Source: Roseomonas sp. KE0001
GTDB lineage: Bacteria > Pseudomonadota > Alphaproteobacteria > Acetobacterales > Acetobacteraceae
Direction: 5' to 3'
Length of the DNA stretch: 64,000 nt
NCBI RefSeq assembly: GCF_016107285.1
Contig: NZ_RCVQ01000003.1
Span: forward strand, 522,735-586,734
Shown here: positions 8,639 to 64,000 of the stretch, piece after piece
How the letters are laid out: each line of letters begins with the position of its first letter
Numbering within the stretch: the stretch's first letter is position 1
Notes under the pieces: model-generated
What the model saw: the letters and a program-made list of their open reading frames with translations, nothing else
Databases searched by the model: none
Told to the model about the DNA's origin: nothing
Translations under genes and position numbers: made by a program

Positions 8639-8644
8639 GGCGGC

Positions 8645-10937: not shown

Positions 10938-11069
10938 GAAGCCGCCCTGTCCCCCTGCGGCGGTAAGCCTGACCGGCCGGGGAAGCGGCTGGCGGGGCCC
11001 CCCGACCCCGCCAGCTACCCGACCATCCCCTTCATCGGCCCCTCGCCCCCCCGAGCTCCGAGCCGTTCA

Positions 11070-11110: not shown

Positions 11111-11221
11111 GCTTAAAACCCGCGTCGGTGCTTGTATAAAATTACGGAAAACATGCGCTTAGACGGCGCAGCGCCGAATCGACGTGAATCGGTAAATAAA
11201 CGTGATGGGTGGGAGTCAAGA

Positions 11222-11636: not shown

Positions 11637-11768
11637 GGTGTGCATGTGCGCCGGGGCCCGGCGGGTGTCAATGCGCCCGGTGCCCCGCGCCCGCCGGTGG
11701 AACGCTTTTCTGGAATAAGGTGTATTATTGCTACGCTTCTACCCGCGACAGCCGCGAATGCCTGGAAG

Positions 11769-13288: not shown

Positions 13289-13476
13289 GACTGGTCTGCC
13301 TCCATGCCCTGTCCTTCCCCTACCATGCGTCGGGCGAGGCTGCCATGCCATGTGGTGGCGAACGGGGTGGTGGCGAACGGGCTTGCATGCGCGGCGGGAC
13401 GGCGGCACAGGACAGGCGGAAACGGGCGGGTGGGCGGCGCGGGCGTCGATGCGCTGGCCGCCGGGAAGGAGCAGGG

Positions 13477-16400: not shown

Positions 16401-17103
16401 CGCGCCGCCGCAGGTGCTGCATTCCGTGGTGCTGTACTGCTTCCGCTGTCTCGCGGGCGGCGACATCCCGCTGAACGACGGCTGCCTGGTGCCGCTCACC
16501 ATCGTCCTGCCGGAGGGCACCTTCCTCTCGCCGCGCCCCGGCGCCGCCGTGGTCGCCGGCAATACCGAGGTGTCGCAGGCCGTCTGCAACGCCCTGCTGG
16601 CGGCGCTGGATGCCTGCGCCTCCGCCCAGGCGACGATGAACAACCTGCTCTTCGGCGACGACACCTACCAGTACTACGAGACGGTCTGCGGCGGCGTCGG
16701 CGCCGGCCCGGGCTTCGACGGCGCCTCGGCGGTGCAGACGCACATGACCAACACGCGCATGACCGACCCCGAGATCCTGGAACTGCGCTACCCCGTCCGG
16801 CTGGAGGAGTTCTCGATCCGGCGCGGCTCGGGCGGCGCCGGGCAATGGCGGGGCGGCGACGGCGCGCGGCGGCGCATCCGCTTCCTGCGGCCGATGCAGG
16901 CCATCATCGTCGCCTCGCGGCGCGAGGTGCCGCCGCACGGGCTGCACGGCGGTGCCGATGGCGCGCCCGGCCGGCAATGGGTGGAGCGGGTCGATGGCAG
17001 CATCGAGCCGCTCGGCGGCCGTGACAGCGCCGAGCTGGTGGCGGGCGAGGTGCTCGGCCTGGAGACGCCGGGCGGTGGCGGCTGGGGACGGCCCGCCCCC
17101 TGA
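13477..17103 (+). CDS. Hydantoinase/5-oxoprolinase family protein (HyuA-HyuB fusion)
   Basis: 1208 residues, the length of the fused ATP-dependent 5-oxoprolinases. Residues 1-680 are the HyuA half: N-terminus [14 protein letters not shown], then [12 protein letters not shown], an actin-like ATPase fold. Residues from about 700 are the HyuB half, with [27 protein letters not shown] and GGGGWGRP at the very end. Such enzymes hydrolyse 5-oxoproline or hydantoins with ATP; substrate cannot be told from sequence. Start ATG has AGGAGCAGGG before it. The stop overlaps the next gene. Confidence 0.92.
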
Positions 17104-51548: not shown

Positions 51549-51624
<76 letters not shown>

Positions 51625-51681
51625 ACGCCTTCAATGACTTAGAGTGATTTAGAAGAGTGGCCAAATGCGGGCAGCCTCTTC

Positions 51682-51702
51682 TGCGGACTCACTGCGGACT
51701 CA
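51682..51702. repeat. Direct repeat TGCGGACTCA x2 near the left attachment site
   Basis: TGCGGACTCA occurs at 51682 and 51693, eleven bases apart, about 60 bases inside the tRNA junction. Spacing of one helical turn suggests binding sites for integrase arms or an excision factor. The TerS gene ends inside the first copy. Confidence 0.4.
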
Positions 51703-52288
51703 GCGGCAGCTCACTCTTCTCCATCGTATCGCCGGCTGGCCGGGGCTGCTCCATACCTGACATCAGGTGCTGAAGGTCGCGGACCAAGTTCCTCTGAAAC
51801 GTGTCCACTGAGCCGCGGATCGAGCGCACAACAGGCTCGGGTAGCCCATGCGTGCGGCCGATTTGACCAGGAAGGCTCTGGAGTGCCTTGCCGAGGTTTG
51901 AGAAGGCCGCGCCTAGAGCTTCCCGCACCTCCGAGGCTTGCACGAGGAAGCCGGCCTCCCGGGCCATCTCCAGCTCCAGACGGCGCTTACGGACCAGCGC
52001 CAGGGCCTGCTGCGGCGTGAAGTCGGTGTCATCAGCGGCGGCGCCTTCCTGGCCGGTAAGCGGCAATCGGTACTGCTCCAACCGCTCCCTTCGCTCCCGC
52101 TGTGCCTCCAGCTCGGCTTCCTCTTTGTGCTGCAGGTGCGCCATCACCTGGTCCGCATCGAACTGCCACTCGACGCCATAACTTCCGCGCGTATGAACAG
52201 GAAAAGCAGGGTCCTTGCGGATCCATTCGTGCAGCGTAGACAAAGAGACAGACAGTATCGTCGCCAGCTCAGATTTATTGACCAGCAT
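51689..52288 (-). CDS. Phage terminase small subunit, Nu1-like
   Basis: 199 residues from ATG 52288 with TTGGAGGATC before it. N-terminal winged-helix MLVNKSELATILSVSLSTLHEWIRK followed by a DADQVMAHLQ element and a long charged helix, the layout of lambda Nu1 (DNA-binding small terminase). The C-terminal half is helical with an ESLPGQIG-like segment for assembly. Recognises the packaging site. No large terminase nearby. Satellite small terminases of this type redirect helper packaging. Confidence 0.82.
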   Translation of the reverse strand: MLVNKSELATILSVSLSTLHEWIRKDPAFPVHTRGSYGVEWQFDADQVMAHLQHKEEAELEAQRERRERLEQYRLPLTGQEGAAADDTDFTPQQALALVRKRRLELEMAREAGFLVQASEVREALGAAFSNLGKALQSLPGQIGRTHGLPEPVVRSIRGSVDTFQRNLVRDLQHLMSGMEQPRPAGDTMEKSELPLSPQ

Positions 52289-52452
52289 TCCAGATCCTCC
52301 AATCATCGACGCAGTCCACAACTTAGGGTCTGTCTTTCTATATCAGACGGAGTCTGAAACCGGGCGCGAATTACCCCCCGGTCCAGGACCCCCTTTGGAA
52401 GGACCCGTTGGGGGGGGTGGGGGAGGCAGGCAGATCGCCTGCCATCCGTGGC

Positions 52453-53178
52453 CTACCGCCTCCTGGCCGTCGCCAGAGCATGGCGCAGCGCCTTGCGGAA
52501 CTCGTCGGTCAGCGCAGCTTCAGCAGCCTCGCGCACGATGCCGTAGAGGTCGAAGATCGGTTCGTAGCGCGGCTGCGATCCGAAACCGTAGACGGGCACC
52601 ACGTTCCGGCCGATCCGCTCGTAGACAGCCGGCTTCAGCCCGCCACGATTGGTGCCGGGACGGATCGCGAAATACTTTTCATTGCGACGCTTTCCCTGTC
52701 CGCGACGTCGGAATGCGCTTGTGCCGTCCAATGCCTTGACGACCGACAGGACCTTCGTGAGTTGCCCTTTGTTGATGTTGCGGTAAGCATCGAGTTCCGC
52801 AGCCAGCCCCGGCATCAGGAACTTTCCCGGCGCCAGGATGCCCGCGGCGCGGAGGATGAGCTCCGATTTCTTGAGAGCCCGCGGCCCTCCGATGATGTTC
52901 GGCGCCAGATACCGACTGGTGGCCGCGCCGTTTGACGCCCTGTCGCGCAGATGTACCGCCGCGACCAGATCCGTTCTGGTCGCTGGCTTGACGTAATTGC
53001 TCCGCATGGTGAAGGGCGTCGGCTTGTCGAAGATGCTGGGCATCTCCCGTGCGACGGCCCTCTGACCAGCCTGCGCCGACCTAGTCAGCGCCAGCGCCGT
53101 GGCGAATGGAATCTGCCGTTTCTCCAGATCATTCAGCGTGCGGATAAGAGGGCGAAAATCCGCCTTGATGTCGAACAT
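52453..53178 (-). CDS. Phage minor tail-like protein (gpZ type)
   Basis: 241 residues from ATG 53178 with strong AGGAGG nine bases upstream. N-terminus MFDIKADFRPLIRTLNDL, then an arginine/alanine-rich body with QIPFATALALTRSAQAGQRAV and a C-terminal DEFRKALRHALATARRR. It resembles lambda minor tail protein Z and related phage proteins, but similarity by eye only. The role in a satellite is unclear; it may be structural or a remnant. Confidence 0.55.
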   Translation of the reverse strand: MFDIKADFRPLIRTLNDLEKRQIPFATALALTRSAQAGQRAVAREMPSIFDKPTPFTMRSNYVKPATRTDLVAAVHLRDRASNGAATSRYLAPNIIGGPRALKKSELILRAAGILAPGKFLMPGLAAELDAYRNINKGQLTKVLSVVKALDGTSAFRRRGQGKRRNEKYFAIRPGTNRGGLKPAVYERIGRNVVPVYGFGSQPRYEPIFDLYGIVREAAEAALTDEFRKALRHALATARRR

Positions 53179-53383
53179 TCGGAAGCCTCCTGAGCTTTCC
53201 ATGATGGCCGCCAGCGACAATGCACGACGGTCGATATACAACCTAAGAGAGAAATCCCTGACCCTGGGATTAGCCCTAATCCTCAACTATTTAGTGTGTT
53301 CAGCGTGAGGCCAATTGCCCCGGATCGGACCCAAATTCCTCTTTCATTCTCCCACCTTTCTTCCTTTATCTATCCAGAAATCC

Positions 53384-53458
53384 GTGTTCCAGTGTTCCCG
53401 TGTTCCAACCGTTTATTATCAATGGCTTGTACGGAACACAGGGTTTTCTTCGTGTTCC
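53384..53458. repeat. GTGTTCC iteron cluster, candidate replication origin
   Basis: GTGTTCC at 53384, 53392 and 53400 (8-base period), then inverted GGAACAC at 53433 and direct GTGTTCC at 53452. It lies in an AT-rich, gene-free stretch between the DUF927 gene and the tail gene. The five copies in 75 bases, next to primase and helicase genes, resemble iterons such as the TGTTCACC boxes used by P4 alpha protein. The rest of 53179-53489 holds nothing else I can name. Confidence 0.55.
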
Positions 53459-53489
53459 AAATCGAGGCTTTTTGGCACACAAACCGGGG

Positions 53490-55385
53490 TCAAAGGTCGG
53501 CTTCGTCCTCCGAAAACAGCTTGTCGGCGATGACATAGAGCCTCTGCTTCGGCTCCCCGGTTGGCCTCAAGGACTGCGAACTGCGGCCGTTCTGATCGCT
53601 GACCAGGAACCCGCGCTCAGTCAAAGACGCAACTGATTGGCGAAACTGGAGGCCGGCCAATGCTTCGTTCATGCCCGTGCTGGTTGCATAATAGACCCAT
53701 CGCCAACGGGTTCCCTTGCCCTCCTGGACGGGCTCCCAGCGACGAAATCCAGCACGATTGACAGTGCGAAAACGTTCATGCGGTGGCTGATCGGGACGCG
53801 TATCCGCATCGTCTTGCACCTCATCCGGCGCCCTGCCCCAGAGCTGAAATCGGCCGGGCCCGTGAAGTTGGATGAAGCGACGGAGTTGGGTCTCGGCCTG
53901 CTGGTCTTCCTGCGCGCCAACCGTCCCGCGCTCTCCGATCCAGGCCTCGAAGCACTGCCGGGCGGCATCGGCAGCTTCGTCGTCAGGCCAGTCGAGAATG
54001 CCAGCCTCGACGGCCAGTTCTCCAGCCAACGCGACCACCGCAAAAAGAGATGCGACGCTCGTCACCTGACCCGTCGCACCGGGCGGCAAGAGCTGACGCG
54101 CCAGCGCGTCCCGGCGCCGCGCCAGCTCAGCTCGGAACCCGCCCTCGTCCGCCGCAAGGCGTTGCGCCAGCCACGCGAGCCAGGCCATCGCCGCCGTGCC
54201 GAAATGCACGGAGGTGACGGCACGGATGTGATCGGAGAAGGCGGCGCCACTCGCATGACCGTGCAGCTGTTCGAAGAGACCATGGCCAGCTCCGGCATCT
54301 GCGTTGACCTCCACGAGCCGAATCAACTGCCCTGCACGAGTTTGCTTGCCGGCCTCCGCGTTCTTTTCAACCACGCCGACCTCGCCGGAAGACAAGACCA
54401 GCACGCGCCATCGTAGTTCAGGCCGAACCATGCCACTGCGGCTGGCCCTGATCTTCCCGCGGCCACCCATCAAGACGTAAGCGGCCTCGCCGAGTTCCCG
54501 ACTGTCGACCAGCCCGATTTCGTCGAGCGGCAGCAGCGCGTCGGAATGGCCGGCAGCCGTCCCCTCCAAGGCGTTCGCCGTGGTTTTCCAGGAACGCAGA
54601 TACCCAGCCGCACCCCCGCCTGCCTCGCCGCCCCAGACGCTGCAGGCCATCAACAGCGCGGAGGTCTTGCCAGTTCGCGATGACCCCCTGAAGTGGACCC
54701 CGCCGCCCTCGGCACCGACTAGATACAGGAGCGGCGCGGCGAAGGCGGCCGCCACGCCCAGGGCGAGCCGGGAGTTTCCTATGCAGAGCTGGCCGACCTT
54801 GGCTTTCCAATCCGCTAACTCCCCGTGCTGCGCGAAGGCGTTGGGTGGGCGCGTCTCCTGCTCGATGAAGACACCCTCGTCACCGGCGCCAATCGCGTGG
54901 CCAGGCAAGGCGAAGACGAGCTTTCCGCCAACACGGTGCCACCCGACCCGCGGAACGGCGGTTGCCCGTGTAGGTGAGCGTGCCTGGCCCAGCAGCTCAA
55001 GAAGCGCTTGGCGCGCGGGCGGACTGACGCCGAGGCGCAAGCCACCATCAGCGAGCATCTCGCGCACCATCGCGCCATCGCCTGCCAGGGCTCGGCGGGG
55101 GATCACCAGCTGCTTCTGCTTGCCGTCGCTGTCGCGGAACTCGACCAGAAGACCCCATCCATTCCCATCGCTGGAGCGAGTTTCCGCCAGCAGCCGCATC
55201 GGCCCGCAGACCCAGATTGGGCTCTTTTCAGTGTCCCGCCAGATTCCGTCAGCATCGACTTTGAAGAAGCGACCGAGGCCATGCCATTCCACGACATTGG
55301 AAGAGCTGGGGGTAATGGAGGCGGGCTTCGCTTCAGCGATGGCTGCCTTAATTCGGCGCTTTCCAGGTTTATCGTCAGTGGACAT
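53490..55385 (-). CDS. DUF927 family ATPase/helicase-like protein
   Basis: 631 residues. P-loop HFRGSSRTGKTSALLMAC near residue 238 and Walker B ALLPLDEIGLVDSRE near 290; upstream a small domain with VWVCGP-like core typical of DUF927 proteins of phages, plasmids and islands. The C-terminal 200 residues look like a winged-helix/linker region. Probably the replicative helicase of the element. The gene is 17 bases after the Toprim gene, same strand. Confidence 0.8.
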   Translation of the reverse strand: MSTDDKPGKRRIKAAIAEAKPASITPSSSNVVEWHGLGRFFKVDADGIWRDTEKSPIWVCGPMRLLAETRSSDGNGWGLLVEFRDSDGKQKQLVIPRRALAGDGAMVREMLADGGLRLGVSPPARQALLELLGQARSPTRATAVPRVGWHRVGGKLVFALPGHAIGAGDEGVFIEQETRPPNAFAQHGELADWKAKVGQLCIGNSRLALGVAAAFAAPLLYLVGAEGGGVHFRGSSRTGKTSALLMACSVWGGEAGGGAAGYLRSWKTTANALEGTAAGHSDALLPLDEIGLVDSRELGEAAYVLMGGRGKIRASRSGMVRPELRWRVLVLSSGEVGVVEKNAEAGKQTRAGQLIRLVEVNADAGAGHGLFEQLHGHASGAAFSDHIRAVTSVHFGTAAMAWLAWLAQRLAADEGGFRAELARRRDALARQLLPPGATGQVTSVASLFAVVALAGELAVEAGILDWPDDEAADAARQCFEAWIGERGTVGAQEDQQAETQLRRFIQLHGPGRFQLWGRAPDEVQDDADTRPDQPPHERFRTVNRAGFRRWEPVQEGKGTRWRWVYYATSTGMNEALAGLQFRQSVASLTERGFLVSDQNGRSSQSLRPTGEPKQRLYVIADKLFSEDEADL

Positions 55386-55402
55386 GGCGTCTCCGGCGCG
55401 CC

Positions 55403-56437
55403 TCAGCGCGAAACAATGCAGTCGTTGAAATCCTTGCCAACCGGCGAACGGGCGATGCGCACTTCGCGACCCTCGGCGGTGAAGCGATCAATGGCACGCT
55501 GCAGGGCTTGCGCAGCGGCCGGGTTGTCGCCGTCGTTGTCGGCGGCGACGATCACGGTGGTGATGGCGGGCGGCAGGCTGATCGACCCGAGATTCCCCAG
55601 CGAGACAGCGCACACCACGCGCTGCTCCGGCACCGACACGACGATGGAAAGCGCGGCCTCCAGCCCCTCGGCGATGACGATCTGCTCACCGGGTGGCGCC
55701 ATCTTAAGGGGCAGCCCACTGCTGCCGCGCCAGAGCGGAACGACGCCGCCGCCATACGATCCATAGACCTTCTTCGGGTGCCGAAGCGCAGCCTTGCGCC
55801 AGATGCCGGCGCCATCCTGGGCGAGATAGGTCCGGTGGGTGGCGATGTGACGCCCGCCGGGCTCGCAGATCGCGGCGAGCAATGCGGGAAGAGGATGTCC
55901 TGCCTCGCTGCACCAGATCGCTTCATGGAAACGGAGCGCGGCCGGCTGCCGGCCCAGGTCGCGAAGCTGAATCCCTCGCCCGGCCAGATAGTCCTCCGCC
56001 GGCGTCCCCAGGATCTGTCGTTGACCGGCGAGGAACAGGCCAAGCGCCTGGCGACGACGTCGCATCAGCTCCTTGTCGGGCTCCCTATCAGACAGCGCTC
56101 TTCCGACTTGTCTTGGTCTTGCAGCGGGAGCGATTCCGTTGCTCAGGCCGAGCCATCGGGACGCCCAGCGAAGGGCGTCACCCTTGTTTCCACCGAACAG
56201 AACTCCGGCGACCAGATCCAGCGCGTCACCGCGCTCCCCCGAGCTGAAGTCGCTCCACACGCCTGCGCGTTCGCCGTGGAGCCTGACCGCCAGCGATTGC
56301 CCTTTCTCACCTTGAAGGCTTCCGCATCGCCATTCATGCCCCTCACGCCGGCCATTAGGAAGCAGCTCACGCGCCAGTTCGGGCGCGCGCGCCGCCAGCA
56401 TCCGCGATACTTCGTGCGCGCCGGGCCCCCGCGTCAC
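55403..56437 (-). CDS. Toprim-domain primase-like protein
   Basis: 344 residues from a GTG overlapping the preceding stop (GTGA). N-terminal zinc-binding-like region (EWRCGSLQGEKGQSLAV...GVWSDFSSGERGDALDLVAG), the usual CHC2-type stretch of element primases though few Cys remain; Toprim core IVIAEGLEAALSIVVS (Glu) and VIVAADNDGDNPA (Asp-Asn-Asp). Likely lays primers for the element's replication with the DUF927 protein. Confidence 0.82.
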   Translation of the reverse strand: MTRGPGAHEVSRMLAARAPELARELLPNGRREGHEWRCGSLQGEKGQSLAVRLHGERAGVWSDFSSGERGDALDLVAGVLFGGNKGDALRWASRWLGLSNGIAPAARPRQVGRALSDREPDKELMRRRRQALGLFLAGQRQILGTPAEDYLAGRGIQLRDLGRQPAALRFHEAIWCSEAGHPLPALLAAICEPGGRHIATHRTYLAQDGAGIWRKAALRHPKKVYGSYGGGVVPLWRGSSGLPLKMAPPGEQIVIAEGLEAALSIVVSVPEQRVVCAVSLGNLGSISLPPAITTVIVAADNDGDNPAAAQALQRAIDRFTAEGREVRIARSPVGKDFNDCIVSR

Positions 56438-56877
56438 GCCATACCGCCATGCGCGGGAGCGTCTGACCAATCGGACTGGCGAAGCGCCGCCTCAACCCAA
56501 CGGATCCGGGCAGACGGCGGAAGAAGCCTGACCCGCTCCGCAAGCGCGTCGCGGGCGGCAAGATCCAGGCGGAGCAACAGACTGCTCACGCCACGACGAT
56601 GGCCTGCAATGCCGCGCGCTATGGAGCGCGCTATCCACGTCGGGACAGTCAGCGCAATTTCATCGTCCAGATAGACACGGCAGACCTCGTGAATTGCGCC
56701 GGACCGAAGGCGACGAACAAGAGCCATCCGGTCGGCTGCTTCGAAGCCGAGAACGGCCAGAACATCGCTGAGCACGACATACGGCATGTCCGGGTGAGGC
56801 GTCGGGCTGGCGACGAAGCGGACCCCGTCAGTTCCGATTGCGGCGATGAAGAGGGCCTCGGTCCTTCGGGAGGGCAT
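56434..56877 (-). CDS. Unknown element protein (147 aa)
   Basis: 147 residues; no family recognised. Looks globular: FVASPTPHPDMPYVVLSDVLAVLGFEAADRMALVRRLRSG resembles an antirepressor/HTH-like start; a basic middle follows. The stop overlaps the Toprim gene start, so it is the first gene of the replication set. RBS GAGG. A terminator hairpin stands just upstream (56908-56933). Confidence 0.62.
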   Translation of the reverse strand: MPSRRTEALFIAAIGTDGVRFVASPTPHPDMPYVVLSDVLAVLGFEAADRMALVRRLRSGAIHEVCRVYLDDEIALTVPTWIARSIARGIAGHRRGVSSLLLRLDLAARDALAERVRLLPPSARIRWVEAALRQSDWSDAPAHGGMA

Positions 56878-56907
56878 TGCGATGCCTCGCTTCTACAATA
56901 AGGAAAT

Positions 56908-56933
56908 GGGAGCCACGCTGCTGCGAGGCTCCC
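56908..56933 (-). terminator. Intrinsic terminator separating element operons
   Basis: GGGAGCC (56927-56933 read on minus) and GGCTCCC pair in seven base pairs with a 12-base loop, followed on the minus strand by ATTTCCTT. It ends the upstream structural set before the replication set. Confidence 0.5.
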
Positions 56934-56938
56934 GTCAA

Positions 56939-57259
56939 TTACTCGCGCGTCGGAAACATCGACTTCAGCCTGCCGCGTGCGGCGTACAGCGGCAGGTCGA
57001 CATCGGCGATCGTGAACTCATCGCCAGCCTCGACGATGCGGCCGTCGGGATGCAGATCATCCACGATGGTAAAGCCGGTGATGGCGACCAGCGTGATGCG
57101 CGGCGCGGCGGCACGCGCGCGGTCCATCGCGTCCGCCTCACGGCTGATGCGCTCGCGCTCGCGCCGCCAAGACAGGTCGGTCTCCGACACCGCGACGCCG
57201 GTCGGTGCGGCGATGGGCGATGCCAGGGTAAAGGCGCCCGGCCGGTTCGTGCTGCTCAT
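56939..57259 (-). CDS. Unknown element protein (106 aa)
   Basis: 106 residues with no family recognised. Begins MSSTNRPGAFTLASPIAAPTG, ends with a compact beta-like region ITLVAITGFTIVDDLHPDGRIVEAGDEFTIADVDLPLYAARGRL. Probably a small phage-type structural or accessory protein judging from position; no further support. Confidence 0.6.
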   Translation of the reverse strand: MSSTNRPGAFTLASPIAAPTGVAVSETDLSWRRERERISREADAMDRARAAAPRITLVAITGFTIVDDLHPDGRIVEAGDEFTIADVDLPLYAARGRLKSMFPTRE

Positions 57260-57275
57260 CTATTGCTTCCTTCAA

Positions 57276-57719
57276 TCAGATATCGGTGTCGCGGAACTGG
57301 AGCGGCGCCAGCAGCAACTGCTCCTCAATAGTCACCCTCGGCCGGATATGCGGATCGGCCTCCCGCAGCGTCTTTGCCTCCAATGCCTTGCGCTCCGCAT
57401 GCTCATTGAGGAGCCGGCGTTCATCCGAGGCCAACTGCATTCCCCATACTCCATTGGCGGACAGCGGAACGGCCGGCCGGCCACCGATGCTGATCGTGGC
57501 GCCATCCGGCGTCGGCAGCACCGGCTTCACCGCGCCGGTGTCGGGATGCAGGATCTGCCGCCGCTCATAGAGCAGCGCCGCTTCGGCGCGGGTCACCTGG
57601 AGTGACTCTCCTGCATCTAGCAAAAGATCCGACAGGCCGGTCCATCCGGAGGGATGCGGATGGAGGCGTACGCGCGCGCCCGGCGCGACCGTGACACGGA
57701 TGCTGTCATCGTTCTGCAT
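57276..57719 (-). CDS. Unknown element protein (147 aa)
   Basis: 147 residues from ATG 57719 (GGAGG upstream; GTG at 57722 is an alternative). No family recognised. Beta-rich N-terminal half (RVTVAPGARVRLHPHPSGWTG) and a charged C-terminus. Start overlaps the stop of the next gene upstream in TGATG, so translation is coupled. Confidence 0.62.
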   Translation of the reverse strand: MQNDDSIRVTVAPGARVRLHPHPSGWTGLSDLLLDAGESLQVTRAEAALLYERRQILHPDTGAVKPVLPTPDGATISIGGRPAVPLSANGVWGMQLASDERRLLNEHAERKALEAKTLREADPHIRPRVTIEEQLLLAPLQFRDTDI

Positions 57720-58318
57720 CACGTGATCCTCCAGGTCGGAAAGACGGCGCGCGGCAGAAGATCCGGCATCACCGGCTGCTTCAGCGACAGGGCGCCCCGC
57801 GCGCGGATGGTCGGATCCTGGTAGGCGGCCTCGACCGCCTCCATCAGTTCCACCCGCGCGCGCTCGGCCTGATCATGAAGCCGCAGTCCTTTCCCGATAA
57901 GGTTCCGGATTTCCTCATAGTCCGCCGCCCAGCTTTCCAGCGCCTCGATGGCCATCACGGCCGAAGCGTGGAGCGCCTCGATTTCGGCCAGCATCCTGCC
58001 CGTGCCCTCGCGCTGCGAAGCCGCGGCGTATCGCTGGGCCAGGTCATTCAGGAGAGTGTTCACCCGCTCACTCGCCAGCCCCGCACTTGCAATCCGCGCA
58101 TCGATCGCCAGGATGTCGGCATGCGCCGCGTGCAGCAGCATGTCGGCGCGTCGGCCGCGTAGGGCATCGAGCTGCAAGGTCAGCTTCTCCGAAGCCCGCT
58201 TGGCCGAGGCGACGGCCGCCGCCAGCGAGGCCGCCGTCTCGTCAGCAGGTTGGAGCGCCCGGATGTCGATCTCCGTGGCGTCGCTTTCGTCAACTACATC
58301 AATGCTGTCCGTCGTCAC
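57719..58318 (-). CDS. Coiled-coil element protein (199 aa)
   Basis: 199 residues from a GTG overlapping the gpD-like gene stop. Almost entirely helical with long Ala/Arg/Glu/Leu heptads (AASLAAAVASAKRASEKLTLQLDAL), so a coiled coil is likely; acidic N-terminus. No family assigned. Position between decoration protein and unknown proteins suggests a virion or scaffolding role, inferred only. Confidence 0.65.
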   Translation of the reverse strand: MTTDSIDVVDESDATEIDIRALQPADETAASLAAAVASAKRASEKLTLQLDALRGRRADMLLHAAHADILAIDARIASAGLASERVNTLLNDLAQRYAAASQREGTGRMLAEIEALHASAVMAIEALESWAADYEEIRNLIGKGLRLHDQAERARVELMEAVEAAYQDPTIRARGALSLKQPVMPDLLPRAVFPTWRIT

Positions 58319-58692
58319 GCCGCGATACTCCCCTTCAGGACGATCCCGGCATCGCGCAGAGGATCGCGGACGGAGGCCAGGTTGTGGCCGGCGCCAAGGA
58401 TGACGGCGTTCTCGTTGAACTCACCCTTGACGTAGACGCCGACATTGCCGAGGTCGACGGCGCTGGCGTCATAGTCGTCGGCGATGATGCCGAAGGGCAC
58501 CTGACTGCCGTCCGAGCTTGCCGAGGCGCTCAACGTGACCTTGCCGGACGCCGTGATCCGGCCGACCACCGCACCGCGCTTGAGGTTCTGGCCGGCGATC
58601 AGCACGCCGTTCCAGGTCGCGATCTGGGTGAGGCCGGCGATCAGCTTGTCCGGTTCGTAGGCCTCGGATGTCTGGAAGACACTCTGCGCCAC
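58315..58692 (-). CDS. Head decoration protein, lambda gpD-like
   Basis: 125 residues from GTG 58692 with GGGAGGGG nine bases ahead; a GTG at 58701 is too near that RBS. Features of the HDPD family: N-terminal arm, then LIAGQNLKRGAVVGRITASGKVTLS with a beta-barrel core, VPFGIIADDYDAS, VYVKGEFNENAVIL. Such proteins cap phage heads. In satellites a decoration protein may be specific to small capsids. Overlaps the 199-aa gene. Confidence 0.8.
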   Translation of the reverse strand: MAQSVFQTSEAYEPDKLIAGLTQIATWNGVLIAGQNLKRGAVVGRITASGKVTLSASASSDGSQVPFGIIADDYDASAVDLGNVGVYVKGEFNENAVILGAGHNLASVRDPLRDAGIVLKGSIAA

Positions 58693-58693
58693 G

Positions 58694-59140
58694 TTAGCCA
58701 CCCCTCCCGCGGCCCTTCGCGGTCGCGCGCAGGACGGCGTCCGCCGCGGCCTCGGCGCTGGGATAGCGGGTGCTGTCAGCCCTGAAGCCGCCGCCGCCAT
58801 TCATCACGGCATGCTGCGGCCAGGATGCCTCCTGCAGCGCCTGATGGGGCGGCTCGACCTTGCTCGCAAGGCGAGGAAGCTGGACGTTCGCGAGGTGCGC
58901 AAAGCGGCACACCGGGGCACCCGCGGCCGAGGCCTTGGGCTTGAGCAAAGCTTGCTTCAAACGCTTCTTCAACGCCGACTTCAACTGCCTGGACTTCCGG
59001 TTCACCTCGAACAGCTTCAGGCCGTCCCTGCTATCGAGCGGCGGCGCGCAGAGGCCGAGCGTGGCCGCCATACGGCGGTTCATCACCGGCAAGGGGCCGC
59101 TGTTCCCCGCCGGAGCCCGGCGAAGTGGTTTCGTCATCAT
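58694..59140 (-). CDS. Basic element protein, unknown (148 aa)
   Basis: 148 residues, Lys/Arg-rich (RKSRQLKSALKKRLKQALLKPKA) with a Ser/Gly C-terminus. No family known. Starts after GAGGAACC; two ATGs in a row (59140, 59137). It immediately precedes the decoration gene, with its stop overlapping that gene's RBS. May bind DNA. Confidence 0.55.
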   Translation of the reverse strand: MMTKPLRRAPAGNSGPLPVMNRRMAATLGLCAPPLDSRDGLKLFEVNRKSRQLKSALKKRLKQALLKPKASAAGAPVCRFAHLANVQLPRLASKVEPPHQALQEASWPQHAVMNGGGGFRADSTRYPSAEAAADAVLRATAKGRGRGG

Positions 59141-59170
59141 TTCGGTTCCTCGAATTATTAGTTGGCTGGA

Positions 59171-59380
59171 TCAGCGCTCGCTGGTGCTGCGGACCAGGCG
59201 CGAGGTCAGCCAGGAATCAAGCTCGTCTTCGGCATAGAAGACCATCCGGCCCACCTTGGCGAAGGCAGGGCCTCCGCCCTTGATCGCCAAGTTCTCCAAG
59301 GTCCGCTCGCTGCAGCCAGCATACTCAGCTGCTCCGCGGCGACGGTGCCAGCGGCGCGACGTCTCACTCGGCTTCCGCAT
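59171..59380 (-). CDS. AlpA/Xis-like helix-turn-helix protein
   Basis: 69 residues. HTH_17-type: AAEYAGCSERTLENLAIKGGG, then GRMVFYAEDELDSWLTSRL, the excisionase pattern. GGAGGAG precedes the ATG. Probably controls excision or the gene set downstream. A paired AGTTCGC repeat lies upstream at 59430-59456. Confidence 0.82.
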   Translation of the reverse strand: MRKPSETSRRWHRRRGAAEYAGCSERTLENLAIKGGGPAFAKVGRMVFYAEDELDSWLTSRLVRSTSER

Positions 59381-59429
59381 TATCTCCTCCAGTTACTGCC
59401 TGCGCCCCTTGTGGCCTCGGCAGGACTAA

Positions 59430-59456
59430 AGTTCGCTCAGTGCGGTTGGAGTTCGC
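59430..59456. promoter_or_regulatory. Direct repeats upstream of the Xis-like gene
   Basis: AGTTCGC occurs at 59430 and 59450, exactly 20 bases apart (two helix turns), 50-76 bases before the HTH gene start. Candidate operator; binding protein unknown. Confidence 0.4.
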
Positions 59457-59481
59457 CAGATGCGTTAAATGCGTCGGTCTA

Positions 59482-60480
59482 CTATTCCGACTTATCTGTT
59501 TTGACGGCTTTCGTCGGTAGCCCGCCGACCGGCACTATGTGCGCCTTATCAATCTTGCCCCACGCGACTCTCCATGGCCGCTGACGAACTATCAGCCGGC
59601 CATCGAAGCTTCGCTCAATCCATTCCTCCGTCGCTTTCAGCGCATCAGCCTCTTTCACCGGCAAGCCAGCCTTCGCATGCTTCTCCATGTGAGGGGCAAG
59701 GAACTCAAGAATCTGCTCCGGCTTCGCGTTCTTCTTCGGACCATTCAGGAGCCGCCTATCCATCTCCAGCAGATCGGGCCGGTCGAACGTCAGAATCTGC
59801 CCGCCCCTCAGCCGGAGTAAGCGAAAGCCGTTTGGAATGATGCTTGCCATCTCAGCATCCGAGCCGACGGAGGAGGGTAGCGGGAGTCGATAAGACAGGC
59901 GTGCCATTGTCTGCCACTCGGAGCTCGTGAAGACGCGTAAGGAGTGACGCGGATCACCAGATCCGTCACGCAGTTCGGCGCGATCTTCACCAAGGCGCAG
60001 ATCCCATAGGCCAATGGTCTCAGGAGCGAATGCGACGTACATCGGCCTTGGCGTTGGCGGCCACGCCAAGCTGGCCAGGACCAGGCTGCCACGACGGATC
60101 CCATGCAGAATGGGCATCAGAAGTTCGGCAATCTGACGACTGGTCAATGGCTGGCCGGCATTATGAAGCAGACGGTCGAGAAAGTCCGATTCCTGATAGT
60201 CTATGGCTGCGGAGCTGAGGGGCTGGCCGAGCTGGCCCGGCAGGTCGAAGTGCAGCCGTTCTATGAGCTGGCTTTCCAGAAAGCTCCCGCCTGAGCTGAT
60301 CAGCCAGGCGATACTTTGGTCCCACGGATCTTTGATGACGACATCGATGGTGGGCTTTGTCGTGCCGGTATCGTTCCCGCGCACGAAGAGAACGGGCGCG
60401 CCCACGACATTCACGTCCGGATGACTTTGCCGCCGCACCAGCACAGGCACAGCGACAGGTGGAAGCCTGATGATGCTCAT
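59482..60480 (-). CDS. Unknown protein of the element (332 aa)
   Basis: 332 residues from ATG 60480 with a GAGGTGG-type RBS. No known domain. N-terminus SIIRLPPVAVPVLVRRQ; middle region rich in hydrophobic strands; C-terminus with a helical stretch KNAKPEQILEFLAPHMEKHA. AT content higher than the chromosome. It lies before the Xis-like gene on the same strand, separated by 101 bases containing the direct repeats. Possibly a satellite-specific or cargo gene. Confidence 0.6.
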   Translation of the reverse strand: MSIIRLPPVAVPVLVRRQSHPDVNVVGAPVLFVRGNDTGTTKPTIDVVIKDPWDQSIAWLISSGGSFLESQLIERLHFDLPGQLGQPLSSAAIDYQESDFLDRLLHNAGQPLTSRQIAELLMPILHGIRRGSLVLASLAWPPTPRPMYVAFAPETIGLWDLRLGEDRAELRDGSGDPRHSLRVFTSSEWQTMARLSYRLPLPSSVGSDAEMASIIPNGFRLLRLRGGQILTFDRPDLLEMDRRLLNGPKKNAKPEQILEFLAPHMEKHAKAGLPVKEADALKATEEWIERSFDGRLIVRQRPWRVAWGKIDKAHIVPVGGLPTKAVKTDKSE

Positions 60481-60610
60481 CGCCACCTCATGCCGGCTGC
60501 CCCATGATGGCAAGACGGCGCGGCGGGCCGGCCATGAGGAGCCGGCTTTCGGCGGCCAGTCCTAGCCGCGCCTGGCAGGCAGCCTAGCCCAGCCAGAGCG
60601 GCCGGGGCCA

Positions 60611-60651
60611 GGGCCCGGCGCCATCCCACTATCCCCTCCTGCGCCGGGCCC
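60611..60651. repeat. 11-bp perfect inverted repeat, hairpin or terminator
   Basis: GGGCCCGGCGC (60611-60621) and GCGCCGGGCCC (60641-60651) with a 19-base loop. It lies in the 271-base gap between the 274-aa and 332-aa genes, after the stop of the former; the most likely role is a terminator. The rest of this gap holds nothing I recognise. Confidence 0.5.
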
Positions 60652-60751
60652 ATGGCGCCCTCCTACAAACCGAGGGATGGTGGGCGGCCTTCGGCGCGCA
60701 GGCGCTGCGCTACCTGGTCACCGTTAACAGGAAGGCCAAGGCTGATCGGCA

Positions 60752-61576
60752 TCACCACACCACCTGGTGGATCTGCGGAAAGTTGCGGGCCAAGTCGGCG
60801 CGCAGGGAGCGGGCCACCTCTCCCTCGGGCCTGTTGAGATCAAAATTCTCCAGCTCGCGAAGGATAATGGCTGCCTTCAGCACCATGCCGAGGGGATCGC
60901 GGGCAGGCAGGGCCGCAATGCGCGACAGCATTGCCTCATACTCGACCTCGGCGGCTTTGGCCTCCACGAGTTCGGGGGTTCCCTCCTGATGGAGCAGCTT
61001 CCCGCAGGTATCCCAAGCCGTCAGGTATCGGGCCGTGACAGTGCTCAGCTCTTCCAACAGCAGGGCAAACGGGGAATCCGTCGAGAGAGCGAAAGCGGGA
61101 TACAAGATGTCGCTAGCCAGCGAGTCCATCACGGCATCCTCCAACCCGTAGGGATACCCGTCGCGATCACGCTGAACCCTCGTCAGCGCGGCGGTGGCTT
61201 TCGCCTTGGCGCCTTCGGCCGTTCGGGCCGGGATGTCCATGATGTCGAAGAGCAGGTCTCGCATCACGGGAGCGCGGATGTCTTGTTCTTTGCTGAAAGC
61301 GTCCTCGGCCGCCTGGTCGCCGCGCTCTTCGGCAGCCAGCATCTCCTCAAAGCAGCGGTTGTAGGCCTCCTCCATCACCATGTAGCGGCGGCAGAGGGCA
61401 ATCAGCTCAACGTCCGGGTTCTCGCCCCGCGGCGCGTAAATGTGCCCGCTTGGCATGTTTTCACCAGAGCTGGGGGAAATATGGGAATTCCCCATACTGG
61501 CGGCTGAGGCCGCAGGCCGGGCGGATGCCAGCAGGCCGGCGGCGATCATGGTGTGTCTTCTTCCGATCGAGTCCAT
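60752..61576 (-). CDS. Unknown protein with possible N-terminal signal (274 aa)
   Basis: 274 residues from ATG 61576, overlapping the stop of the 60-aa gene (TGATG). N-terminus GRRHTMIAAGLLASARPAASAAS has a twin-arginine/signal-like look; the rest is helical and acidic, with RRYMVMEEAYNRCFEEMLAAEERGDQ. This resembles the small hypotheticals frequent in rhizobial and Acetobacteraceae islands; function unknown. First of the leftward operon's translational chain is the gene at 61755-62090. Confidence 0.62.
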   Translation of the reverse strand: MDSIGRRHTMIAAGLLASARPAASAASMGNSHISPSSGENMPSGHIYAPRGENPDVELIALCRRYMVMEEAYNRCFEEMLAAEERGDQAAEDAFSKEQDIRAPVMRDLLFDIMDIPARTAEGAKAKATAALTRVQRDRDGYPYGLEDAVMDSLASDILYPAFALSTDSPFALLLEELSTVTARYLTAWDTCGKLLHQEGTPELVEAKAAEVEYEAMLSRIAALPARDPLGMVLKAAIILRELENFDLNRPEGEVARSLRADLARNFPQIHQVVW

Positions 61577-61758
61577 CAGATGGCCCCCGCCCAAGTGCCG
61601 AGGCCGGCGGCGAGGGCCGCCATGGCGTAGGCAAAGATGCGGAGGCCGCGGTCACCGGCCGGCACGGGATCAGCCGGACGGTGGAGGATGGAAAGCGGCG
61701 GAAGGTCGCCATTGGCAACATAGGCGAGCGCCATCTGGGCGCGGCTGGGGCGGATCAT
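61576..61758 (-). CDS. Small one-span membrane protein (60 aa)
   Basis: 60 residues, both ends overlapping neighbours by one to four bases, strong evidence of real translation. C-terminal hydrophobic stretch IFAYAMAALAAGLGTWAGA as a membrane span; cytoplasmic N-terminus. No family recognised. Confidence 0.6.
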   Translation of the reverse strand: MIRPSRAQMALAYVANGDLPPLSILHRPADPVPAGDRGLRIFAYAMAALAAGLGTWAGAI

Positions 61759-62090
61759 CGGCCGGCCTCCAGCGGTGCGGGCTTGCTGAAGTTAGCGCGG
61801 GCCCGCCGCGGCCCGGGAAGCCGGATGACATTGTTCACCGCCGGATGCTGCGCCGGCTGCAGCGAGGCTTCGTCGGCCTCAGCCTCGCCATCGGCGTCCG
61901 GCTCCAGGTCGGGATCGCCGTCCAGGGCATCGGCCTGGGCCAGCAGGAGCTCCACCTGGTCGAGGAGGTGCTCGATCTCGTCTTGGAGCCGGCGCTTCTC
62001 CAGGAGGTAGGCGGCCGCCCACGGTCGGAGGACGGCTCTTCTTCTGCTGGACGCAATAAGGGCGTCGGGGGTATGGGCGCGTTCAGCCAT
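61755..62090 (-). CDS. Unknown acidic coiled-coil protein (111 aa)
   Basis: 111 residues from ATG 62090 with GGAG. A helical segment EKRRLQDEIEHLLDQVELLLAQADAL is probably a coiled coil; next an acidic block and a basic tail. First gene of a three-gene overlapping operon (62090 to 60752). Divergent from the XRE regulator. Confidence 0.6.
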   Translation of the reverse strand: MAERAHTPDALIASSRRRAVLRPWAAAYLLEKRRLQDEIEHLLDQVELLLAQADALDGDPDLEPDADGEAEADEASLQPAQHPAVNNVIRLPGPRRARANFSKPAPLEAGR

Positions 62091-62160
62091 AGCCAGCTCC
62101 GTTCACGAGCGGGTTGCGGTCAGGCCGGGCGACGGTGCTGGTAACACCCGCTCGGCCGCA

Positions 62161-62192
62161 GTTCCTTGTGGAACGTCGCCATTAGTGACACT
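62161..62192. promoter_or_regulatory. Palindromes in the divergent XRE intergenic region
   Basis: GTTCC-TTGT-GGAAC (62161-62174) and AGTG-A-CACT (62184-62192) lie 9-40 bases before the XRE start, in the 110-base gap to the divergent operon. Either could be the operator of the XRE protein. The GTTCC half is shared with the iterons at 53384. Confidence 0.35.
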
Positions 62193-62200
62193 GTGCAGCT

Positions 62201-62467
62201 ATGGCCGCAAGCGCTAAAGTCTCTTTAAGCGACATTACTCCAGAGCAGTCTAGGGCAGCGCGTGGGCTGCTGGACTGGAGCCGCGATCAACTCGCGCTAG
62301 CGGCCGGAGTGCCGAAGCGGACGATCATGCGCTTCGAAGGTAGAGAGGTGCAGCCTCGGGTAACTACGATCACTGCTATCCGCGCCGCCCTGGAGGCGGC
62401 CGGGGTCGAGTTCATCGCGGAGAACGGGGGAGGGGCGGGGGTGAGGCTTCGCAACCCCGCTCCCTAG
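62201..62467 (+). CDS. XRE-family transcriptional regulator
   Basis: 88 residues. HTH_3 fold ITPEQSRAARGLLDWSRDQLALAAGVPKRTIMRFEGRE, then a C-terminal AIRAALEAAGVEFIAENGGGAGVRL. Typical of small prophage-type repressors. Divergent from the 62090 operon, so probably controls it and itself. Confidence 0.85.
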   Translation: MAASAKVSLSDITPEQSRAARGLLDWSRDQLALAAGVPKRTIMRFEGREVQPRVTTITAIRAALEAAGVEFIAENGGGAGVRLRNPAP

Positions 62468-62473
62468 GTCAAG

Positions 62474-62773
62474 CTACTCGCGGAGTTCTGCCTTGATGGC
62501 GCGGGCGGCTTGAGAATAAGTCCTGCACCCTTCGATCCCGATCAACACCAGGCCATAGATTTCCACGTTCGGCAGGTAATCGGTGCAGTTCCAAAGTAGG
62601 CCGCAGAGCTGGCTCAGCGAAAACTCGCGACCCTGCATTTGGGCCACAGGGAGAGGGTCCGTCTCAGATAGCCCAGAGTAGATGTCGATCGCGTCAAGAA
62701 ACTCTCTACGGAGAGCGTGAGGCGCGTGGCCACCACGCATCCGGTCATAGCCAAGGAACTGAGTATTTCTCAT
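62474..62773 (-). CDS. Unknown protein (99 aa)
   Basis: 99 residues, convergent with the XRE gene, six bases between stops. Contains GREFSLSQLCGLLWNCTDYLPN and YGLVLIGIEGCRTYSQAARAIKAEL. No family recognised; codon use and start look genuine but no clear RBS. Confidence 0.5.
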   Translation of the reverse strand: MRNTQFLGYDRMRGGHAPHALRREFLDAIDIYSGLSETDPLPVAQMQGREFSLSQLCGLLWNCTDYLPNVEIYGLVLIGIEGCRTYSQAARAIKAELRE

Positions 62774-62801
62774 TTAGACGTGCTCCAGCATCGGCGCCGA
62801 T

Positions 62802-63086
62802 ATGGCGCGGGATGCCGCAGAGCGTCGCGTTGATCAGAAGCCAGACGCGCGGCGATTGTCTGGGCTCGATACCCTCAAGCAGGCGCTGCTATCGTATCAA
62901 CGGCGAATGATCGCTGCAATCCGCGCTGCCTTGGAGGTGGCTGGGGTCAAGTTCATCGCGGAGGCCTGGGGCGGGGCGGGGACTAGGTTTGTCCGGACCG
63001 AGCCCGCGGCAGAGCAGCCAGATCGGCCCGACTTCGCCATCACCATCGGCGCCGCCCTCGACCGGCTCAAGCCCGACGACGCCTAG
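62802..63086 (+). pseudogene. Truncated XRE-like copy
   Basis: The middle of this 94-codon frame, MIAAIRAALEVAGVKFIAEAWGGAGTRF, closely matches the C-terminal half of the XRE protein at 62201-62467, but no HTH precedes it. The upstream part does not match. Likely a decayed duplicate or domain fragment; could be a short gene. Confidence 0.4.
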
Positions 63087-63096
63087 GCAAAAAGAA

Positions 63097-63114
63097 GCCC
63101 AGCACGGGCTGGGC
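63097..63114. terminator. Bidirectional terminator hairpin
   Basis: GCCCAGC (63097-63103) and GCTGGGC (63108-63114) pair with an ACGG loop. On the minus strand it is followed by TTCTTTTT, a good U-tract; on the plus strand by CAATTTC. It lies downstream of the truncated XRE frame. The rest of 63115-63411 holds no gene I can support. Confidence 0.7.
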
Positions 63115-63411
63115 CAATTTCACACGCAGAAGGCAATAGGCAATGCGCTGCGGGGAGGAATTGTGCGGCGCGATAGATCAACTGGCCAGATTGTTTTTGG
63201 TTGCGGCACCGCCTGGGAGGAGCAGCCCATGACCACGGACCTTGATGCTCTGCCCGCTGCGCTGACTGATCTCTATCGGGCGACACGAGGCAGATCTGCA
63301 TCCCTTGGGGCGCCACGCGCTTAGCGATATCCACCAGCCTCTCGAGGTTGACCATCTGATTGCGGCTCGTCCGCCGGCTGGCGCCGCGCACGCTGTCGAC
63401 CTACCGGCCGA

Positions 63412-63750
63412 TTATCCCCACCCATGCTCCAGGAGCCTTCGTAGGATCTCTGACTTCAGCTCCATCTCTCGGCGCAGCTCTGCCCACCTGCTGCCAAGTA
63501 CTTTGTCTCCCCGACCGAAGGCCTCAGAGGAAAACACCTCGCTAAGCAACGCTCTCTCGTTGATCAGGCGCCGGACCGACGCCAATGCCTGATCAATCAA
63601 ATCCATCTGCGCCAAGCTCATCTCGCTCGCAGAGTAGCCATGTCCGAGATGGCAAATGAAGGCGAGCGGATCATCTACCCTCTTCAGAACTCCGCCACAG
63701 TTCGGGCATGTTAGCCCAAAGGGCTTACTACTTTCTGGCTCCTCATTCAT
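63412..63750 (-). CDS. Stand-alone zinc-ribbon protein, CheB-tail-like
   Basis: 112 residues. TCPNCGGVLKRVDDPLAFICHLGHGYSASEM has the paired CxxC and CxxGH arrangement seen in the C-terminal zinc ribbon often fused to CheB methylesterases in Alphaproteobacteria. Here it is alone, followed by an all-helical region (LAQMDLIDQALASVRRLINERALLSEVF). Role unknown. Confidence 0.6.
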   Translation of the reverse strand: MNEEPESSKPFGLTCPNCGGVLKRVDDPLAFICHLGHGYSASEMSLAQMDLIDQALASVRRLINERALLSEVFSSEAFGRGDKVLGSRWAELRREMELKSEILRRLLEHGWG

Positions 63751-64000
63751 GGCTGATAACCATCTCTGTTCCTAAAGGCCTGGCAGCCCCAGCCTGCGGC
63801 GAAGCTAACTCATCACCGCGCCGACTTTGATCATGTTGCTGTTTTGAAACGCATGAGGGGCTGAATATTATCCACCCGTTTTAGCAAGATGCTGTGATCA
63901 GGCCTTTGTTTGGATGGTCGCTGATGCGCCACACCGCCTTTACAACCATCGACAACAGCTTGGCGTGAGCACCCGCTCCCCGCCGAGATCCGCGATCAGC
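63751..64000. other. AT-rich end of window, no gene recognised
   Basis: Contains several stops in all frames. Nothing identified; could be a degraded insertion sequence or the start of the next element gene. The element's right end may lie beyond 64000. Confidence 0.3.

What the first reader, a model, noticed from the sequence alone, without database searches (positions are those of the whole stretch)
51625..64000. Possible phage-satellite element at tRNA-Lys with small terminase, decoration protein, primase and helicase but no capsid genes
Seen: an AT-richer block after a tRNA with TerS-like, gpD-like, tail-like, Toprim and DUF927 genes, mostly on one strand, and no portal, large terminase, major capsid or integrase. 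Known: P4 and PICI satellites carry their own replication and a TerS or decoration protein and borrow capsids from a helper. Inference: this may be a new alphaproteobacterial satellite type combining PICI-like TerS with a P4-like primase set. Two transcript blocks are split by a terminator at 56908-56933.
Basis: partly seen in the sequence, partly recalled or inferred. Interest (0 to 1): 0.78.

Follow-up and report, generated by a model that had tools for sequence, protein, structure and literature searches.

The report
Cos-bearing phage satellite beside tRNA-Lys
Next to a tRNA-Lys gene lies a small DNA element, likely mobile, with replication genes, a small terminase and a predicted phage packaging site but no recognisable packaging motor, portal or main capsid gene, so it likely spreads by riding in the particles of a lambda-like helper phage, as a family of similar islands in related bacteria would too.

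Summary
The tRNA-Lys(CTT) 3' end (45 bp) recurs once elsewhere in the genome, on contig C1, beside an inward-facing tyrosine integrase; the window ends at a contig end, and C1's start is the only one of 68 fetched contig ends that overlaps it (7 bp). Joined, the element would be about 17.0 kb. The genome has no match to the GpA large-terminase or gpE capsid families. The decisive new find is a lambda-type cos motif (52363-52406, minus strand) directly upstream of TerS, as in full GpA prophages; phage JBD68's record ends inside this motif. As bait in 397 genomes of the family it gave 35 sites: 11 in prophages, 15 (this one included) in islands with DUF927 or Toprim replication genes and no large terminase, 9 unclear. 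Twelve of the 15 islands have a tRNA gene facing cos within 2.5 kb. So this is likely one of a family of cos-type satellites in Acetobacteraceae, organised like Gram-negative PICIs; it is unusual in carrying cos, TerS and a gpD-like decoration protein together. No GpA helper is resident, not every island of this plan has the cos, induction and packaging are untested, and the contig join is unproven.

The parts
51549..51624 (+). tRNA-Lys(CTT), integration target; last 45 bp (51580-51624) = attL
   Evidence: 45-bp identical copy at G000:C1:4613-4657, the only other match in the genome
51689..52321 (-). small terminase, Nu1/phrog_141 type (ATG start probably at 52288)
   Evidence: PHROG E=3e-17; Pfam Nu1 2e-4, below cut-off
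52363..52406 (-). predicted cos site: cosQ-like GGGTCCTTCC plus cosN-like GGGTAATTCGCGCC
   Evidence: only match in window, 0 of 100 shuffles; only match in genome; same motif upstream of TerS in prophages and islands
52453..53286 (-). phrog_1924 protein ('minor tail protein'; ATG start at 53178), next to cos as in phages Solano and JBD68
53490..55385 (-). DUF927 primase/helicase-like replication protein
   Evidence: Pfam E=1e-74; PHROG 'DNA primase' 5e-82
55403..56470 (-). DUF7146+Toprim primase
56434..56877 (-). 147-aa protein, no family
   Evidence: no relative in the loci compared
56908..56933 (-). stable hairpin after the 106-aa gene, possible terminator
   Evidence: -21.1 kcal/mol, z -4.3; not in the strict terminator list
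56939..57259 (-). 106-aa protein, no family
57276..57722 (-). 148-aa orphan
   Evidence: no match but itself in 5.8 billion proteins at the tool's sensitivity
57719..58318 (-). 199-aa predicted all-helical protein
   Evidence: one relative, 87% over 66% of its length, on a 923-bp contig; weak similarity to a protein two ORFs from TerS in locus L290 (31% over 131 aa); AF2 pLDDT 65
58315..58800 (-). gpD-like head decoration protein (GTG start probably at 58701)
   Evidence: HDPD E=5e-16; phrog_49 2e-25; 52% to a prophage copy in L292
59171..59380 (-). HTH_17 regulator/excisionase, AlpA-like by place and PHROG match
   Evidence: HTH_17 E=3e-8; phrog_66 6e-6; Pfam Phage_AlpA not matched
59482..60513 (-). 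343-aa protein, no family
60752..61594 (-). 280-aa protein, no family
61755..62090 (-). 111-aa protein, no family
62201..62467 (+). XRE/HTH_3-like regulator on the opposite strand; relatives in sister islands
   Evidence: E=2e-4, just under cut-off; 60% to L036, 54% to L082
62474..64000 (.). small ORFs up to the contig end; the integrase end of the element is on contig C1 (INT C1:2914-4263 minus; attR C1:4613-4657)

Best explanation
The block after tRNA-Lys is likely most of an integrative element, bounded by a 45-bp repeat of the tRNA 3' end, and is predicted to be a cos-type phage satellite: it would excise and replicate with its own genes and then have its DNA packaged, from its own predicted cos site and with its own small terminase, into the particles of a lambda-like helper phage. 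Inferred steps: (1) on helper infection or induction the AlpA-like HTH_17 protein turns on excision by the C1 integrase; (2) the Toprim and DUF927 proteins replicate the excised DNA; (3) the satellite's TerS binds the cosB-like stretch beside its cos and recruits the helper's GpA-type large terminase, which cuts at cosN and fills a helper procapsid; (4) the gpD-like protein, perhaps with the helical 199-aa protein, decorates or adjusts that capsid. Shown by sequence: the 45-bp repeat, the integrase, the gene order, the cos motif, TerS, gpD, and no match to the GpA large-terminase and gpE capsid families in the genome.
For: 45-bp tRNA repeat with an inward-reading integrase. That integrase's eight best matches among the loci compared (44-54%; L102 and L265 are one element) all lie in DUF927 islands, then identity drops to 28%. 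C1 start is the only one of 68 fetched contig ends that overlaps C23's end by 5 bp or more. No PF05876 or PF03864 match in the genome; the models ring in 3 and 2 of 14 control genomes. cos motif: one in the window, 0 in 100 shuffles, one in the genome, 42-84 bp from the matched part of TerS in islands and prophages alike; JBD68's linear record ends inside it. Bait scan: 35 sites in 32 of 397 family genomes, against 7 hits of the reversed control; 15 satellites, 11 prophages, 9 unclear, with a facing tRNA within 2.5 kb in 12/15, 0/11, 2/9. Same HTH_17-Toprim-DUF927-p1924-cos-TerS order in L267. Islands closed by 41-55-bp tRNA repeats, 7.4-16.5 kb, in 6 of 14 loci tested. Toprim tree: satellite label clustered, 5 changes against 11.3, 0 of 500 shuffles as low. 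phiAH14b, reported packed in the capsids of its presumed helper (PMC4936722, abstract and passages), has int, AlpA, Toprim and DUF927 genes.
Against: The C23-C1 join is not proven: the overlap is 7 bp, the frame across it has no start codon nearby, and in relatives G386 and G374 the C1-side gene lies 1.4 Mb away or on another contig from rodA/tRNA-Lys. No GpA helper in this genome. Not all islands of this plan have the motif: no cos by the tRNA in 9 of 13 loci, among them 4 of the 6 closed ones. Lack of a nearby tRNA in prophages is partly expected, since late genes follow their cos; and the 15 satellite sites are not all independent (L274-L276 and L264-L265 are close kin). The window's own place in the Toprim tree is open, its nearest rows being islands without a cos match; TerS rows of satellites are not one clade. 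The private cosB/TerS idea is only suggestive (5 of 11 against 1 of 5). Several genes have no known relative. No induction or particle data.
Confidence: 0.8

Rival explanations
1. A decayed lambda-like prophage that lost its late genes, leaving TerS, a gpD and a tail gene by chance.
For: The retained genes have prophage homologues; the p1924-cos-TerS order is also that of full prophages such as L035/L104 and L154-L156; L268 shows that such remnants exist (TerS plus a 237-aa large-terminase fragment).
Against: gpD lies upstream of the primase genes, not downstream of TerS, so simple deletion does not give this order; the main ORFs are open; 15 sites of the same kind, 12 of them with a facing tRNA; the integrase reads inward, as described for PICIs and unlike prophages (PMC10111431, passages).
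Confidence: 0.1
2. The left end of a complete prophage whose structural genes lie in the assembly gap.
For: The window stops at a contig end and the join to C1 is not proven.
Against: No GpA_ATPase and no gpE capsid match in a genome estimated 100% complete; TerS ends 65 bp from the tRNA, where a prophage would continue with its large terminase; sister islands closed by tRNA repeats show no GpA terminase or lambda portal either.
Confidence: 0.06
3. A dead or domesticated satellite, kept for another function (for example blocking superinfecting phages) and no longer mobile.
For: No GpA helper resident; degenerate duplicated pieces near both contig ends.
Against: The two att copies are identical over 45 bp; int, replication genes, TerS and the cos motif are open or intact by sequence.
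Confidence: 0.15

Closest known systems
Gram-negative PICIs, above all EcCICFT073 of E. coli (PMC6092414)
   Same: int, AlpA-type regulator, own replication genes, lambda-type cos, a head decoration protein, transfer by helper phages in EcCICFT073 (passages read); four-zone order with inward integrase (PMC10111431, passages)
   Different: Replication pair is Toprim+DUF927; this element has its own Nu1-type TerS beside cos, whereas EcCICFT073 has none; host family is inferred to be Acetobacteraceae; no capsid homologue found; gpD lies before the replication genes
phiAH14b, putative satellite of Pseudomonas sp. ANT_H14 (PMC4936722, KU708005)
   Same: int, AlpA, Toprim primase, DUF927 protein (33% identity to the window's), 16.8 kb, reported in the same capsids as its presumed helper
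   Different: No match to the window's TerS or gpD in it; its packaging site was not established in the passages I read
P4 of P2/P4
   Same: Small integrative satellite with primase/helicase, cos packaging and a decoration protein (Psu; recalled)
   Different: No P4 alpha domain, Psu or Sid among the Pfam matches; TerS and gpD are lambda-type
Capsid-forming PICIs
   Same: Same integrase/regulator/primase plan (recalled); a similar element sits in this genome on C45
   Different: They carry portal, capsid and both terminases; none of these but TerS was found here

Membership tests
Gram-negative PICI | conserved organisation: integrase, replication module, master regulator (criterion i, PMC6092414) | tested here: met
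   INT on C1, Toprim+DUF927, HTH_17/phrog_66 regulator; the join of the contigs is inferred and Pfam Phage_AlpA itself did not match
Gram-negative PICI | att sites never used by prophages (criterion ii) | tested here: inconclusive
   facing tRNA by cos in 12 of 15 satellites and 0 of 11 prophages, but prophage att sites were not mapped
Gram-negative PICI | no phage structural or lytic genes (criterion iii) | tested here: inconclusive
   no portal, TerL or capsid match; but gpD and phrog_1924 are present. EcCICFT073 itself has a decoration protein and a capsid-like protein
Gram-negative PICI | size around 12-15 kb (criterion iv) | tested here: inconclusive
   about 17.0 kb if C23 and C1 abut; six closed relatives 7.4-16.5 kb
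Gram-negative PICI | integrase reads inward (PMC10111431) | tested here: met
   INT C1:4263 to 2914, away from attR at 4613
Gram-negative PICI | induced and packaged by a helper phage | not testable with these tools
   needs culture
P4-like satellite | alpha-type primase-helicase, Psu, Sid | tested here: not met
   no such Pfam match among the 20 scanned ORFs or the 7 on C1
Capsid-forming PICI | own portal, major capsid, both terminases | tested here: not met
   absent from the scanned ORFs; GpA TerL and gpE not matched genome-wide; the HK97-type set of this genome is on C45, in another element
lambda-like prophage | GpA large terminase, portal, gpE capsid | tested here: not met
   (GpA, gpE genome-wide); portal tested in the block and on C1 only

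The most novel reading that the evidence does not exclude
A lineage of satellites in Acetobacteraceae, not in print as far as I could search, that do not just steal a helper's shell but bring a private packaging address (cos plus matched TerS) and their own single virion parts - gpD and a helical cofactor here, tape-measure proteins, a stand-alone head protease or a baseplate hub in sisters - to assemble particles made to their own measure.
Probability: 0.3. Interest if true: 0.78.

Novelty: new variant of a known kind. Interest (0 to 1): 0.6.

Why it matters
It gives a sequence bait, the cosQ-cosN motif, that finds satellites and possible helpers in one pass, in a bacterial family for which my searches of an open-licence paper library showed no satellite described (no paper holds 'phage satellite' with 'Acetobacteraceae'; two unrelated papers; none of the 10 listed of 1,094 holds 'phage satellite'). 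Because some islands carry cos with TerS and others cos alone, one of them in a genome that also holds a full GpA prophage (G366: L276 and L277), how satellites gain or lose packaging independence becomes testable. Single virion genes in satellites also offer test cases for how capsid and tail assembly are redirected.

Tried and rejected
TerS phylogeny to ask whether satellites have a TerS lineage of their own: unresolved; satellites need 2 changes and only L086+L088 pair firmly. Structure of the two orphans next to gpD: 199-aa model all-helical at pLDDT 65, 148-aa model at 51, too poor for fold searches, so none was run. Homologue searches for these two: themselves, and for the 199-aa protein one 87% piece. 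Relaxed cos search by the tRNA: nothing in 9 of 13 loci; the other 4 already had strict matches. Second search for att repeats, in 13 cos loci: none found, since the stretches reach only about 12 kb upstream of cos. Flank synteny to prove the C23-C1 join: did not support it. Defence-gene scan of seven proteins: only a partial DrmA match of the STAS/ATPase protein on C1. P4 hybrid reading: dropped.

Rows dropped or limited: the tree uses 41 chosen rows out of the 152 loci and later loci; the TerS tree uses 16 rows, 14 different. L088 is not from the 397-genome scan and is left out of the 15/11/9 counts, but is one of the 5 TerS-bearing satellites. L035 and L104 are the same contig, as are L036 and L081, L102 and L265, L086 and L286, L094 and L289. 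The satellite rule is Toprim or DUF927 upstream and no GpA TerL downstream; L267 and L287 have only about 3 kb of sequence downstream of cos, L267, L271 and L287 have no tRNA found, L263 has a DUF927 match only (in two pieces) and L287 a Toprim match only. Four TerS-bearing prophage loci (L030, L031, L157, L161) miss the strict cos pattern and show looser versions by eye.
Full report
WHAT IS THERE. The window is G000:C23:522735-586734 and ends at the contig's end. After tRNA-Lys(CTT) at 51549-51624 GC per kb falls from 66-79% to 58-68%. Reading leftwards: an XRE-like regulator (plus strand), then on the minus strand three proteins of unknown family, an HTH_17 regulator, gpD-like HDPD, a 199-, a 148-, a 106- and a 147-aa protein, DUF7146-Toprim primase, DUF927 protein, phrog_1924 protein, small terminase, then the tRNA.

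THE OTHER END. The tRNA's last 45 bp recur once in the genome, at C1:4613-4657. Beside it, 350 bp away and reading away from it into the element, lies a tyrosine integrase with an arm-binding domain (C1:2914-4263). Its eight best matches among the loci compared (44-54% identity; two of them are one element) all lie in islands with DUF927; the next is at 28%. C23's end and C1's start share 7 bp, the only overlap of 5 bp or more among 68 fetched contig ends (of 91 others). If they abut, the element is about 17.0 kb. Against this: the reading frame across has no start codon nearby, and in two relatives with large contigs the C1-side neighbour gene is not near tRNA-Lys (G386: 1.4 Mb away; G374: other contig). 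In none of the ten relatives' stretches beyond tRNA-Lys that I fetched does C1's flank match, so synteny does not support the join; that region varies in the genus.

WHAT IS MISSING. GpA_ATPase and Phage_cap_E match nothing in the genome, estimated 100% complete; the models ring in 3 and 2 of 14 control genomes. Other capsid types were not searched genome-wide; an HK97-type set exists on C45 in another element.

THE COS SITE. Between phrog_1924 and terS lies a GGGTCCTTCC block followed by a GGGGGTAATTCGCGCC block. The same pair at nearly constant spacing precedes terS in prophage loci L028, L035 (=L104), L095, L154-L156 and in islands L086, L088, L094; prophages L030, L031, L157 and L161 miss the strict pattern and have looser versions. 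In phage Solano the order is phrog_1924, the motif, terS, terL, portal, and the linear record of phage JBD68 ends inside the motif, 93 bases after its phrog_1924 gene. GGGTCCT is lambda's cosQ core as I recall it; the roles of cosQ, cosN and cosB are given in PMC6092414 (passages). In the window the pattern occurs once, never in 100 shuffles, and once in the genome.

THE FAMILY. A Toprim profile found 72 loci in GTDB genomes and, in IMG/VR, 103 of which 80 were kept; annotation with HMMs built here separated prophages with GpA large terminase and portal from islands with int, HTH_17, Toprim and DUF927 and no such match, many ending at a tRNA. Six of 14 tested are closed by 41-55-bp tRNA repeats: L082 11.9 kb, L086 16.5, L093 14.3, L102 13.2, L107 7.4, L127 8.9; of these only L086 and L102 have the cos. 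The cos motif as bait in 397 genomes of the host's family gave 35 sites in 32 genomes, against 7 for the reversed pattern; I fetched the 32 sites not already held. Classification: 11 prophages, 15 satellites including the window, 9 unclear. A tRNA facing cos within 2.5 kb: 12 of 15 satellites, 0 of 11 prophages (partly expected, since late genes follow their cos), 2 of 9 unclear. DUF927 lies upstream in 14 of the 15. TerS is present in 4 of 15 satellites (window, L267, L286, L289); the rest show cos alone. L267 shares the window's order HTH_17-Toprim-DUF927-phrog_1924-cos-TerS. In a Toprim tree of 41 rows the satellite label is clustered (5 changes, shuffled mean 11.3, 0 of 500 as low), though the window's own place is open and close kin (L274-L276, L264-L265) add to the clustering. 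Host family: two of the same contigs (L036=L081, L094=L289) are titled Acetobacteraceae, so family f1 is inferred to be that.

BORROWED VIRION PARTS. The window has gpD; the closed island L093 a 943-aa tape-measure protein; L267 a tail protein, a 541-aa tape-measure protein and a protein matching the first half of a head-protease family, with its integrase end not in the fetched stretch; L276's locus a tape-measure ORF whose place inside the element is not proven; L290, an unclear locus, a baseplate hub and a weak relative of the 199-aa protein. The 148-aa protein is an orphan and the 199-aa one nearly so.

HOW IT LIKELY WORKS. Helper-triggered expression, excision at the 45-bp att sites, Toprim/DUF927 replication, recognition of cos by the satellite TerS, cutting and filling by the helper's GpA large terminase, decoration by the satellite gpD. 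Only the parts are shown; each step is inferred from lambda and PICI biology. Of the TerS-bearing satellites 1 of 5, of the TerS-less ones 5 of 11, have a cosB region more like a prophage's than any of 100 shuffles; that would fit a private TerS-cosB pair but is too few, and three of the five are close kin. Full GpA prophages exist in the same genus (L029 of G016; L284 of G107 and L285 of G162), so helper-type phages are around, though none is resident.

COMPARISON. EcCICFT073 already shows a PICI with lambda-type cos, a capsid-like and a head decoration protein, and no TerS (PMC6092414, passages); PMC10111431 (passages) gives the four-zone PICI plan, inward integrase and capture of late genes. 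phiAH14b (PMC4936722, abstract and passages), described by its authors as a putative satellite, has the same int-AlpA-Toprim-DUF927 core. So the kind is known; the lineage, the TerS+cos+gpD combination and the cos-bait family did not turn up in the listings of my open-library searches. de Sousa et al. 2023 on satellites across bacteria could not be read.

VERDICT. Likely a cos-type, PICI-like satellite; a new variant of a known kind, interest 0.6.

Noticed in passing
L005 (G000:C45:160000-179000), 3409-17617: A second satellite-like element in the same genome at tRNA-Arg: P27-type TerS, TerL, HNH, HK97-type capsid, portal, DUF927, weak HTH_17, XRE-like gene; looks like a capsid-forming PICI. 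Tail genes were not searched in full.
   Followed up: partly
L276 and L277 (genome G366, contigs C5 and C10): A cos-only satellite at tRNA-Lys and a full GpA prophage with TerS, portal and gpD in one genome: a candidate satellite-helper pair. Their cosQ-cosN blocks are alike, but in the cosB region L276 is closer to prophage L095 (0.69) than to L277 (0.62, shuffles up to 0.61).
   Followed up: partly
L267 2714-3628: Stand-alone protein matching only the first half of head maturation protease family phrog_53, beside a tape-measure gene in a satellite-like locus.
   Followed up: no
G000:C1 (L008) 1025-2334: DUF4325 STAS-like protein and a STAS/HATPase protein as cargo near the integrase; partial DrmA match.
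   Followed up: partly
window 62368-62440 and 62909-62981; C1 135-355 and 2612-2839: Short degenerate duplications (85% and 76%) near both contig ends, possibly why the assembly broke there.
   Followed up: no
window 63412-63750: Zinc-ribbon-like 112-aa ORF that resembles the C-terminal tail of CheB-type proteins (recalled; no family match).
   Followed up: no
L036 / L081 (10,458-bp contig): A related island whose contig seems to end on both sides in the same tandem-repeat-like sequence, judged by eye from translated ORFs.
   Followed up: no
PP003922.1 (L025), vB_Pae_U10: 10.2-kb record deposited as a phage: int, excisionases, two primase genes of the Toprim/DUF927 kind and one annotated capsid gene; reads like a satellite.
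   Followed up: no
L284, L285 (same genus, G107 and G162): GpA prophages with a shortened 39-bp cos variant and no TerS found by the HMM used.
   Followed up: no
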